Below, in pieces: positions 1 through 50,073 of a stretch of 50,109 nucleotides of DNA. The position numbers were made by a program, and so were the translations under genes. Source of the stretch: Simkaniaceae bacterium (GTDB lineage: Bacteria > Chlamydiota > Chlamydiia > Chlamydiales > JACRBE01); assembly GCA_021734805.1 (NCBI GenBank), contig JAIPIG010000012.1, positions 1 to 50,109 on the forward strand, written 5' to 3'. Below the pieces are notes generated by a model. The model saw nothing but the letters and a program-made list of their open reading frames with translations, was not told the DNA's origin and ran no database searches. Numbering within the stretch: the first letter of the stretch is position 1; the number at the start of each line of letters is the position of its first letter.

Positions 1-46
1 TATACATACTGTAATCGCGCTCGCTCTTAAAGGCGAAGTGTAAAGT

Positions 47-126
47 GGTTGCTCCTAAAAAACGGAGTAGTTATAAAACTCTCCAATCAGAACCGAGGTT
101 AAAACCTCAAAACTATAGGAGCAACC
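47..126 (+). repeat. Inverted repeat and hairpin in the IS left end, just before the transposase
   Basis: GGTTGCTCCT (47-56) pairs perfectly with AGGAGCAACC (117-126), which ends directly before the transposase ATG at 128 and contains its AGGAG Shine-Dalgarno. A second hairpin, GAGGTT (95-100) with AACCTC (103-108), lies inside. In an RNA the long stem would bury the ribosome-binding site, so it could limit transposase translation of read-through transcripts, or form part of a structured IS RNA. The pairing is seen directly; the role is inferred. Confidence 0.55.
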
Positions 127-127
127 A

Positions 128-1174
128 ATGAGCCATTATGTAGGATTAGACATTTCTATGAAAGAGACAGTTATTTGTATCGTCAATGATAAAGGGGTGT
201 CCGTTCATAGGGGGAAAACAAAAACTGACCCAGAAAAAATTGCTTACCATCTCAAAAAAATTGGTTTAAAAATTGAAAAAATTGGCCTCGAAAGTGGGTC
301 TTTGAGTCACTGGCTGGTTAATGAGCTCCGAAAACTTGAATTACCTGCAATTTGTATTGATGCTCGAAAAATGGCAGTATTTCTCTCTGTCCGAGTTAAT
401 AAAACGGATGATAATGATGCTCAAGGAATTGCAGAGGCCATGAGGTGTGGTTTGTACAAGGAAGTTTGTCAAAAATCCCAACAAGCCGTAGAAACTAGCA
501 CCCTAATGCAGTGTCGAAGAACTTTAGTTCAGCAAAGAGTGCAGTTGATCAATTCGATAAGAGGTTTTTTAAAAACATATGGTGTTCGACTTGGTTCCTG
601 CGGAGAAAAAGAATTTTCCGAGAAGGTAAGGGCCATATTACCGGGGGCCCTGATGATTGCTCGTGAGGGAGTTGAGAGTTTGGTTAATTGTTATGAAAAA
701 CTCAGTGCAGAAATTAAGATACTAGACAAAAGAGTAGAAACCCTTGCGAAGGAAGATGAAGACGTTAAACGACTCATGACAGTTCCGGGAGTTGGTATAG
801 TTACGGCAATGACCTTTAAGATTGAAATTGACGATCCTCATAGATTTAAAAACTCTCGAGATGTGGGAGCCTACTTTGGAATGACCCCTCGCCAATATTC
901 TTCAGGAGAAACCAAACGACAAGGTCGCATATCGAAATGTGGTTCTTCAGAAATGAGAAGTTTGCTTATGGAAGCCGGGTTAGTTTGTTTGACTCGGAGT
1001 AAGAAATGGAGTCGAGTCAAAGCTTGGGGATTAAAAATCATGAGAAAAAACGGGGCAAAAAAAGCCTCCGTGGCAGTTGGGCGAAAGCTTGCAGTCATTA
1101 TGCACCGGATGCTTTTAGAAAAAAAAGACTTTATCCACGGCGAAGAGAAGAAAGTACAGGTAAAGGCAGCCTAA
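128..1174 (+). CDS. IS110/IS1111-family transposase (DEDD recombinase)
   Basis: This 348-residue protein is a full-length IS110-family transposase/recombinase that moves its element with a RuvC-like DEDD domain and a C-terminal serine domain. The N-terminus reads YVGLDIS (first Asp) and is followed by IGLES (Glu) and VNKTDDNDA (the conserved KTD-x2-DA block) near residues 92-101. The C-terminal half has the helix-hairpin-helix-like VPGVGIVTA segment and the GAYFGMTPRQYSSGETKRQG region with SSG, typical of the Transposase_20 (IS116/IS110/IS902) domain. There is no frameshift or stop. The start is supported by AGGAG ending 8 nt upstream. It is the only gene of the element. It is probably active or only recently silenced. 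Confidence 0.95.
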   Translation: MSHYVGLDISMKETVICIVNDKGVSVHRGKTKTDPEKIAYHLKKIGLKIEKIGLESGSLSHWLVNELRKLELPAICIDARKMAVFLSVRVNKTDDNDAQGIAEAMRCGLYKEVCQKSQQAVETSTLMQCRRTLVQQRVQLINSIRGFLKTYGVRLGSCGEKEFSEKVRAILPGALMIAREGVESLVNCYEKLSAEIKILDKRVETLAKEDEDVKRLMTVPGVGIVTAMTFKIEIDDPHRFKNSRDVGAYFGMTPRQYSSGETKRQGRISKCGSSEMRSLLMEAGLVCLTRSKKWSRVKAWGLKIMRKNGAKKASVAVGRKLAVIMHRMLLEKKDFIHGEEKKVQVKAA

Positions 1175-1499
1175 GATTGGATTTAAAACAGGGGCTCTGC
1201 CCCTAACCCCGGCAAAGGACTACTCGCCCTTTGCAACCCCGGAAGGGTATTTAATTGCGAGGGAAAAGCTGAATTTAAATTAGGATATTCTCTAGAACAG
1301 AATTTGTGAAAACCCCGAAGGAAAGGGCAAAGGCGTCGAGCGGTTGGCTCTCTTAGAAGCCGTTTTATACATTGCCTTGCCCCTTGCTTCGAAAGGTATG
1401 GTGGGGCGGAGAAATACAAAGTGTTCTCCATAAAGACCCCGAAGAGAACCACGGAGTTTTTTCACAATTCGATAAAAGGAGAAAAACTTACTTGACATC
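1175..1499 (+). ncRNA. Candidate guide (bridge/seek) RNA region in the IS right end
   Basis: These 325 bases lie between the transposase stop and the right subterminal repeat and hold no convincing gene. They are rich in stem-loops: GGGGC/GCCCC at 1191-1203, and GCAAAGG (1212-1218) with CCTTTGC (1228-1234), followed by more G/C-rich complementary runs to about 1400. In IS1111-type elements the non-coding right end is known to encode the RNA that guides target choice. The placement and hairpins fit that, but no guide loops were matched to the target, so this is an inference from position and structure. Confidence 0.4.
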
Positions 1500-1512
1500 A
1501 GCGCGATTAGAG

Positions 1513-1686
1513 AACCGCTCGTCATTCAAGAGTTGTTTTTTTTGTCGCCGGCATCCCCGCTTGGTCGATTTACCTCACCTCTGCCTATTGTCAATAGCGC
1601 ATCGGTTCGGTAAAGAGCCTTCGGCCCGATCGACCATCGGTGCGCCGGCTTCTAAAAATTCCAACTCTTGAATCCCTCCCGGTATA
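1513..1686. repeat. Palindromic MITE-like repeat, copy 1 (left arm interrupted by the IS)
   Basis: ATTCAAGAGTTG (1524-1535) is the exact reverse complement of CAACTCTTGAAT (1662-1673). Inside lie TGGTCGAT and its complement ATCGACCA, and a GCCGGC near each arm (1547-1552 and 1644-1649). The outer right end reads CGGTATA, complement of the TATACCG that starts copy 2 at 49898. The left TATAC appears to sit at 1-5, split off by the insertion sequence. Arm spacing (about 126 nt) nearly equals that of copy 2 (about 124 nt). The unit has no gene and lies just downstream of the cmk-plsC stop, so its RNA hairpin could also act as a terminator there. Confidence 0.65.
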
Positions 1687-1702
1687 TTTCGGTATAAAAT
1701 GT

Positions 1703-3022
1703 CTAGCGCAACAAATTGCTTTCAACCTCTTGCTGCAAAGCTCGAACAGCCATCTCAACTTGAGATGCAATCTGCGCTTGATACTGTTTATCATTCAATG
1801 ATCCCCTCTCTGAAAAATAGATGGGCTTCCCAAAAATGCAAATCATTGTTTTGAACAGTTTTGGCAACTTTCTACTTCTTGGCCATACCTCAAAAGCGCC
1901 GTGGATATAAACAGGGATAACCGGAGCACCTGTCCTCCCAACTATCCAACCAAGCCCTCTTTTAAAAGGCTCAATCTGCTTTGATCTCGCCCGACGACCC
2001 TCCGGGAACATTACGACTTTCTTTCCTTGCAAGATGAGGCGTTCAATCGAAGAAAACAAAGAGATATCACTGACCCCTCCGGTAATTGGATGAGCATTTA
2101 AAAATGAAATAATGCGACCAAAAAAGAAATGCTTAAATAAGGAAGCGCGGGCTAAGAAATGTAGTGATTTAGGACAACAACACGAAATAATAGGCGGATC
2201 TAAAAAGGATGTATGATTAGAAGCAATAATCGCTGCACCATCGATAATATTCTCTTTGCCATAAACCTTGATATGATAAAAACACCTAATACAAAGATTA
2301 ACAAGTCCTCGAACAGTGTAATAAGCGATTTTCCCCCATACAGTATCCTGACGCCTAGATTTCTTCACTCGATTGACGATTTGTTGTACAACTTCGCCAA
2401 TTGTAAAATCCGAAGTATCGACGACAATGGCATCTTCGGGACAAATTAAGGGAGAAATCTTGCGATTAGAATCATTCGCATCGCGAATCGATTGCTCTTC
2501 TAATATTTTTTCAACTGTGATTGCCTTAACTTGATCAGGAAATTTTTCTTTGAGCTCGGCAAATCGCCGTTCAGCTCGGACGTATGATCGAGCTTTTAAA
2601 AAGAACTTACACTCAGCATGCGGAAAAACGACAGATCCTAAATCTCTCCCCTCCATTACAACATCCTGCCCTTGAGCAAACTGTCTTTGCAAAGCAACAA
2701 TATGATGTCGTACACTTTCAAACTTGGCAATTTCGGATGAATACTTTGTCACATTTGCCGAACGAATATCTGAAGTAACGTCTTGATCCGATAAAAAATA
2801 CTTTTTTCTAGATCCTTCTACTTTCATAGAAAAGTGAAATTGTTGAAAAATATCTTCAGGCCAATTCTTCTCATCTATGGGAAGTTTACGGTTTAGAATA
2901 TAAAGGGCAAAAGCCCGATACATTGCCCCTGTATCGAGATATAAAAAACCCAACTGCTCAGCAACTAATTTTGCAGTTGTTGTTTTGCCGGTTCCCGAGG
3001 GGCCATCAATTGTGATAATCAT
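1703..3022 (-). CDS. cmk-plsC: Fused cytidylate kinase / 1-acylglycerol-3-phosphate acyltransferase
   Basis: Two enzymes are joined in one 439-residue reading frame. Residues 1 to about 222 are cytidylate kinase (CMP/dCMP to CDP/dCDP), with the P-loop GPSGTGKT at 7-14, LDTGAMYRA at 29-37 and the EGRDLG motif at 124-129. Residues about 240-439 are a PlsC acyltransferase that makes phosphatidate from lysophosphatidate. It has the catalytic NHTSFLD (HX4D, His270 and Asp275), FPEGR at 339-343, and VIPVYI at 368-373. In Chlamydia these are, to my knowledge, two adjacent genes, cmk and plsC, downstream of cdsA, so the fusion keeps the order. The linker near 216-235 is basic. It is the last gene of the purA-uppS-cdsA run, about 107 bp after cdsA. 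CDP supply and phosphatidate both feed CDP-diacylglycerol synthesis by CdsA next door. Confidence 0.93.
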   Translation of the reverse strand: MIITIDGPSGTGKTTTAKLVAEQLGFLYLDTGAMYRAFALYILNRKLPIDEKNWPEDIFQQFHFSMKVEGSRKKYFLSDQDVTSDIRSANVTKYSSEIAKFESVRHHIVALQRQFAQGQDVVMEGRDLGSVVFPHAECKFFLKARSYVRAERRFAELKEKFPDQVKAITVEKILEEQSIRDANDSNRKISPLICPEDAIVVDTSDFTIGEVVQQIVNRVKKSRRQDTVWGKIAYYTVRGLVNLCIRCFYHIKVYGKENIIDGAAIIASNHTSFLDPPIISCCCPKSLHFLARASLFKHFFFGRIISFLNAHPITGGVSDISLFSSIERLILQGKKVVMFPEGRRARSKQIEPFKRGLGWIVGRTGAPVIPVYIHGAFEVWPRSRKLPKLFKTMICIFGKPIYFSERGSLNDKQYQAQIASQVEMAVRALQQEVESNLLR

Positions 3023-49876: not shown

Positions 49877-49914
49877 ATGAGTTATACCGAAATGAGTTAT
49901 ACCGAAATGAGTTG
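49877..49914. repeat. Tandem 15-bp direct repeat at the edge of the palindromic repeat
   Basis: ATGAGTTATACCGAA occurs at 49877-49891 and again at 49892-49906, followed by the start of a third unit, ATGAGTT. The second unit runs into the left arm of the element at 49898. It could be a duplicated element end. It is too short and few-unit to be a CRISPR. Confidence 0.7.
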
Positions 49915-50073
49915 AAGAATTGGGGTTTTAGCAAAGATCAGCGCTTCGAATTTTTATCAGGCTTTAGCCGGCTTAATTTTTTGATCCTATTGAAGATAGG
50001 TCAAAAAATTAAGGGTGAAAAGTCGAAGATGCCGGCGAAGATAAAAACCAATTCTTCAATTTATCTCGGTATA
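49898..50073. repeat. Palindromic MITE-like repeat, copy 2
   Basis: Left arm 49898-49923 begins TATACCGAAATGAG and ends TTGAAGAATTGG. The right arm (50048-50073) is its reverse complement at 23 of 26 positions. The middle forms another hairpin, TTAATTTTTTGA with TCAAAAAATTAA, on either side of about 25 nt. GCCGGC occurs at 49967-49972 and 50031-50036. The 176-bp length and the TATACCG ends match copy 1 near the start of the window. It lies about 100 bp after eno and holds no gene. The outer bases suggest a TA target. Confidence 0.75.

What the first reader, a model, noticed from the sequence alone, without database searches (positions are those of the whole stretch)
1..1686. An IS1111-type element has inserted into one arm of a palindromic repeat
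Joining bases 1-5 (TATAC) to 1516 on (CGCTCGTC) rebuilds a 25-base arm that matches the opposite arm (reverse complement of 1662-1686) at 20 of 25 positions, starting TATACCG and ending ATTCAAGAGTTG. A second, uninterrupted copy with the same TATACCG ends is at 49898-50073. IS1111 and IS110 elements are known to target palindromes such as REP sequences and attC sites; a MITE-like palindrome in a chlamydia would be a new target type for this family to my knowledge.
Basis: partly seen in the sequence, partly recalled or inferred. Interest (0 to 1): 0.6.

Follow-up and report, generated by a model that had tools for sequence, protein, structure and literature searches.

The report
RNA-guided jumping gene inside a mini-transposon
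A jumping gene of the IS1111 family has landed exactly at one end of a short palindromic repeat in a chlamydia-like bacterium, and the guide RNA it probably encodes matches that spot; related copies in other chlamydiae carry different guides that match the ends of other mobile elements, so the case is a new example of a known RNA-guided mechanism.

Summary
A 348-aa IS1111-type transposase (128-1174) lies between subterminal repeats (9-20, 1501-1512). The element joins its flanks at TAT-AC|CGCTCGTC, the left end of a ~178-bp palindromic repeat (here MITE-A). The genome has about 30 uninterrupted copies, and all 22 sampled read TATAC before CGCTCGT. The left flank rests on a 139-bp contig overlap (C29 to C12), so that half is inferred. 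The palindrome at 49898-50073 is a different family (MITE-B) sharing only TATACCG ends.

The best explanation is RNA guidance. The non-coding region after the gene holds a predicted two-loop bridge RNA/seekRNA. One loop carries CGAGCGGT, complementary to target ACCGCTCG, and TATAC. Across 10 chlamydial lineages the guides covary with each element's own target (right guide 6.7/8 against 3.4/8; 1 in 200,000 permutations). In two high-contiguity relatives, multiple copies sit in the ends of a different MITE (G097) and of an IS630 element (G152).

IS1111 of Coxiella inserts into the MITE QMITE2 (PMC5896051), and IS4321/IS5075 target Tn21 terminal repeats. This is a new member of a known kind. The repeated programming onto ends of TA-flanked elements appears unreported in the papers searched.

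The parts
4..5 (+). left copy of the AC core (target TAT-AC, then IS ATACTG...)
   Evidence: comparison with uninterrupted MITE copies; same AC in the 10 lineages compared
6..1515 (+). inserted IS1111-type element (1510 bp added relative to uninterrupted copies, counting one AC core)
9..20 (+). left subterminal inverted repeat CTGTAATCGCGC
128..1174 (+). IS1111-type DEDD transposase, 348 aa
1290..1461 (+). predicted bridge RNA / seekRNA, two stem-loops (aligned region; exact RNA ends unknown)
   Evidence: consensus fold with 19 pairs changed on both sides across 11 elements; fold z-score about -2.3
1335..1344 (+). right-target guide GTCGAGCGGT (8 nt CGAGCGGT complementary to target ACCGCTCG)
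1365..1370 (+). left-target guide TTATAC (TATAC equals target left side)
1395..1399 (+). probable left-donor guide GGTAT (pairs with element left end ATACT)
   Evidence: permutation p about 0.001
1443..1449 (+). probable right-donor guide AGAGAAC (identical to element right end)
   Evidence: invariant in alignment A1; matches 1509-1515
1501..1512 (+). right subterminal inverted repeat GCGCGATTAGAG
1514..1515 (+). right copy of the AC core
1514..1688 (+). MITE-A, right part of the interrupted palindromic repeat (its first TAT lies left of the element)
   Evidence: about 30 further copies in the genome
49898..50073 (+). MITE-B, a different palindromic family sharing only TATACCG ends; not a copy of MITE-A

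Best explanation
The element encodes a DEDD transposase and, in the region downstream of the gene, a bridge RNA/seekRNA with a target loop and a donor loop. The circular form of the element recombines at an AC core with a target read by two short guides: TATAC on the left and CGCTCG(T) on the right. In this genome that sequence is found essentially only at the left end of MITE-A and its remnants, so the element inserts there, leaving TAT-AC-[IS]-AC-CGCTCG. Shown here by sequence: the junction, the uninterrupted sites, the conserved two-loop RNA structure, and guide-target covariation across lineages. Inferred: transcription of the RNA, its binding to the transposase, the circle intermediate, and activity today. 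In related chlamydial elements the guide has changed to match the ends of other TA-flanked elements, or unrelated sites.
For: Own guide against own target in 10 lineages: right guide mean 6.7 of 8 against 3.4 of 8 with other lineages' targets, left guide 4.4 of 6 against 2.0, each reached in 1 of 200,000 permutations (elements and loops). Donor guide covaries with the left end, p 0.0006-0.0013. Structure: 91% of cells paired, 19 pairs with changes on both sides, 0/500 shuffles as high, slid versions at most 47%. Target sequence: 32 sites in this genome, 24 in G001 whose element has the same guide, 0 in seven other genomes. G097: five of five junctions read fall in the ends of MITEs starting ACTCGTTCC, guide GAACGAGT. 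G152: nine places where the element's right end is joined to the end of an IS630-type (DDE_3) element, next to about a dozen uninterrupted ends, guide AAATGAGT. The order of the guides (top-strand complement 5' of bottom-strand match) and the downstream position are those reported for IS1111 (PMC11187229).
Against: The 8-nt guide match in the window alone is weak: about 9% of random 25-mers match the region as well. One lineage (G126) does not match on the right (3/8), and two G152 copies (L098, L104) have right flanks that do not match. The left junction of the window depends on a contig overlap. The ten elements are related by descent, so the permutation p-value is not exact. No expression data. 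Rfam has no matching family.
Confidence: 0.88

Rival explanations
1. The transposase recognises the folded hairpin (palindrome) of the MITE rather than a guide-matched sequence.
For: MITE-A folds strongly as a hairpin (-69.9 kcal/mol); several IS1111/IS110 targets (REP, attC, transposon ends) are palindromic; G040's left flank is an inverted repeat GACTCAC-TGAA-GTGAGTC.
Against: Guides covary with targets. G219, G142 and G148 targets show no evident palindrome. Insertion is in only one arm, the one that fits the guide. In G152 the target is the end of a full IS630 element.
Confidence: 0.07
2. Chance insertion, or an assembly artefact joining a contig end to a repeat.
For: The window begins at a contig end, and many contig ends of this assembly lie in these repeats.
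Against: The right junction is read through within one contig. The same geometry occurs repeatedly in two high-contiguity relatives (G097 in 1 contig, G152 in 2). The only left end in the assembly ends TATATAC, as predicted.
Confidence: 0.03
3. The MITE inserted next to, or was carried by, the IS, rather than the IS inserting into the MITE.
For: MITE-A copies insert at TA dinucleotides, and the junction is at a TA-rich end.
Against: The MITE here lacks its terminal TAT on the right side of the element, and TATATAC is found at the other end. Uninterrupted copies have the bases contiguous. The guide match explains the position.
Confidence: 0.02

Closest known systems
IS1111 of Coxiella burnetii in QMITE2 (PMC5896051)
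   Same: IS1111-family element using a MITE as insertion hot spot, with part of the MITE on each side
   Different: The Coxiella target is a GTAG REP inside QMITE2; here the target is the TA-side terminus of an unrelated MITE, and the guide RNA is identified by covariation
IS4321/IS5075 in Tn21-family terminal inverted repeats (title cited in PMC11187229)
   Same: IS1111-family elements aimed at the end of another mobile element
   Different: Tn21-family ends there; TA-flanked MITE and IS630 ends here
ISPa11, ISKpn4, ISEc11 seekRNA systems (PMC11187229)
   Same: Downstream non-coding region with two guides in the same order; subterminal inverted repeats
   Different: Different targets (REP, attC, linear); experimentally shown there, only predicted here
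IS621 and IS110-group bridge RNA (PMC11208160)
   Same: Two-loop RNA with target and donor guides and a short core
   Different: RNA upstream and guide order reversed in the IS110 group; CT core in IS621 (own knowledge), AC here

Membership tests
IS1111 family | DEDD transposase with C-terminal PF02371 and G--P----S(T)G motif, 330-350 aa | tested here: met
   348 aa, PF01548 and PF02371, GMTPRQYSSG at 251
IS1111 family | subterminal inverted repeats of 11-13 bp | tested here: met
   9-21 and 1500-1512, 92% complementary
IS1111 family | long non-coding region downstream of the gene | tested here: met
   1175-1500 downstream against 6-127 upstream
IS1111 family | terminal extensions of 7 bp left and 3 bp right | tested here: inconclusive
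   Comparison with uninterrupted copies gives 3-5 bp left and 1-3 bp right depending on which AC is counted; IR limits are ambiguous
bridge RNA / seekRNA system | two guides matching the two strands of the target, top-strand complement first | tested here: met
   9 of 10 lineages fit on the right side
bridge RNA / seekRNA system | two-loop structure with donor loop | tested here: met
   donor covariation
bridge RNA / seekRNA system | RNA expressed and bound by transposase | not testable with these tools
   needs expression and purification
MITE (MITE-A) | short, no transposase gene, terminal inverted repeats, many copies at TA sites | tested here: met
   about 178 bp, TATACCG...CGGTATA ends, about 30 copies
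MITE (MITE-A) | autonomous partner with the same ends | tested here: not met
   No TATACCGCTCG ends seen around the five DDE_3 loci held for this genome; the one complete IS630 has other ends. Other transposase families were not searched. The name MITE-A is therefore used descriptively (MITE-like)

The most novel reading that the evidence does not exclude
In Chlamydiales, IS1111-type elements have repeatedly acquired guide RNAs that aim at the TA-flanked ends of MITEs and IS630 elements: a left guide TATAC reading the shared TA-flanked edge and a right guide reading the family-specific end. This makes them RNA-programmed parasites of other mobile elements that switch to new elements by re-coding about 8 nt. 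The tree does not group the four TATAC-aiming lineages, and well-supported branches force at least two changes.
Probability: 0.5. Interest if true: 0.55.

Novelty: new member of a known kind. Interest (0 to 1): 0.4.

Why it matters
It gives a natural series of matched guide-target pairs from chlamydial IS1111 elements at about 45-75% transposase identity, useful for testing how bridge RNAs are re-coded in evolution. It also suggests why such elements favour abundant, mostly harmless landing sites (ends of repeats) in reduced genomes. The single insertion in the window is an ordinary example.

Tried and rejected
A first G097 repeat search used the wrong strand coordinates and found only itself; repeated correctly. 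DDE_3 loci in G000 were examined as the autonomous partner of MITE-A and none fits. Rfam gave no match. The JB 2003 paper on IS4321 is not held and is cited only by title through PMC11187229. Three further paper searches found no report of chlamydial IS1111 guides or of bridge RNAs aimed at MITEs; the library is incomplete.

Full report
What was checked. The window is a complete contig (C12) of a 1.8-Mb, 54-contig assembly. Bases 128-1174 encode a 348-aa transposase with both IS110/IS1111 domains. Subterminal inverted repeats lie at 9-21 and 1500-1512.

The junction. Joining 1-5 with 1516 onward gives TATACCGCTCGTCATTCAAGAGTTG, 20 of 25 identical to the opposite arm. About 30 other copies of this palindrome are in the genome, and in all 22 distinct copies sampled the five bases before CGCTCGT[CG]ATTCAAGA are TATAC. 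The left side is less direct. The only other left end of the element is the last 139 bp of contig C29, and 139 bp is the overlap length between other contig ends too, so C29-C12 is an assembly-graph edge. A break there implies a second, unassembled left neighbour. The flank reads ...GGAAACATATATAC|ATACTG, as expected for a MITE end.

The palindrome at 49898-50073 is another family (MITE-B). It has its own ~20 long copies and shares only the TATACCG ends with MITE-A. The two families sit side by side at C18:40057-40407.

Mechanism. IS1111 elements are known to carry a seekRNA or bridge RNA downstream of the transposase gene (PMC11187229; PMC11208160). The region 1290-1461 aligns with ten related chlamydial elements and has a two-loop consensus structure with 33 pairs, 19 of them changed on both sides in at least one sequence. 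Observed pairing is 91%, against 82% in shuffles and at most 47% when partners are slid. The first internal loop holds GTCGAGCGGT (1335-1344) and TTATAC (1365-1370). These are the complement of the target's right side ACCGCTCG and a copy of its left side TATAC.

On its own the 8-nt match is not significant: about 9% of random 25-mers do as well. The evidence comes from covariation. In ten lineages with readable junctions, the guide at the homologous position matches the element's own target much better than the other lineages' targets (6.7 against 3.4 of 8; 4.4 against 2.0 of 6; 1 of 200,000 permutations each). The G126 exception was kept in the test. The element's left end also covaries with a guide in the second loop (p about 0.001). 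All junctions in that set share an AC core.

Targets of relatives. In G097 (one contig) five of five copies read have right flanks that begin a MITE (ACTCGTTCC...), of which about 40 further matches exist, many of them uninterrupted. In G152 (two contigs) the element's right end is joined nine times to the end of an IS630-type element, and about a dozen uninterrupted ends are present. G001 has the same guide as the window and 24 TATACCGCTCG sites, while seven other genomes searched have none. Of four G001 sites read, three open a MITE-like palindrome and one does not. Other lineages (G126, G129, G142, G148, G040, G077, G219) use targets I did not identify as mobile-element ends. In the transposase tree the four TATAC-aiming lineages are not one group, and starred branches force at least two changes of label; gains and losses cannot be separated.

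Comparison with what is known. By tested features it is an IS1111-family element; the length of the terminal extensions is ambiguous. Insertion of IS1111 into a MITE was described in Coxiella (20 of 21 copies in QMITE2, PMC5896051). Insertion of IS1111-family elements into transposon ends is in the title of the 2003 IS4321/IS5075 paper cited in PMC11187229. REP targeting is surveyed in PMC1525189. What I did not find described is the repeated aiming at TA-flanked MITE and IS630 ends in Chlamydiales; the paper library is partial.

Limits. No expression or binding data. Related elements are not independent samples. I found no autonomous partner of MITE-A among the DDE_3 loci of this genome, so 'MITE' is descriptive. 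Guides in G040, G077 and G129 were placed by flanking homology and by eye.

Noticed in passing
window 1706-3022 (-): Cytidylate kinase and acyltransferase domains in one 439-aa open frame (Pfam): an apparent cmk-plsC fusion next to the MITE.
   Followed up: partly
window 49898-50073: MITE-B, a second palindromic family with TATACCG ends and about 20 long copies; the end of contig C9 matches the last part of this window at 99%.
   Followed up: partly
L138 (G000:C2) 1-1150: Complete IS630-type element with TATATAGTACTTCC ends directly next to a TATACCGAAATG MITE-B-like end.
   Followed up: no
L014 (G000:C29) 2-1543: Long open frame without a Pfam match runs into the left end of the IS, so the MITE or IS may have truncated or extended this gene.
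   Followed up: partly
G000 contig ends: Many contig ends of the assembly lie in MITE-A or MITE-B copies with 138-139 bp overlaps.
   Followed up: partly
L132 (G126): Two IS1111 right ends in tandem 21 bp apart; this copy's right flank does not fit its guide.
   Followed up: no
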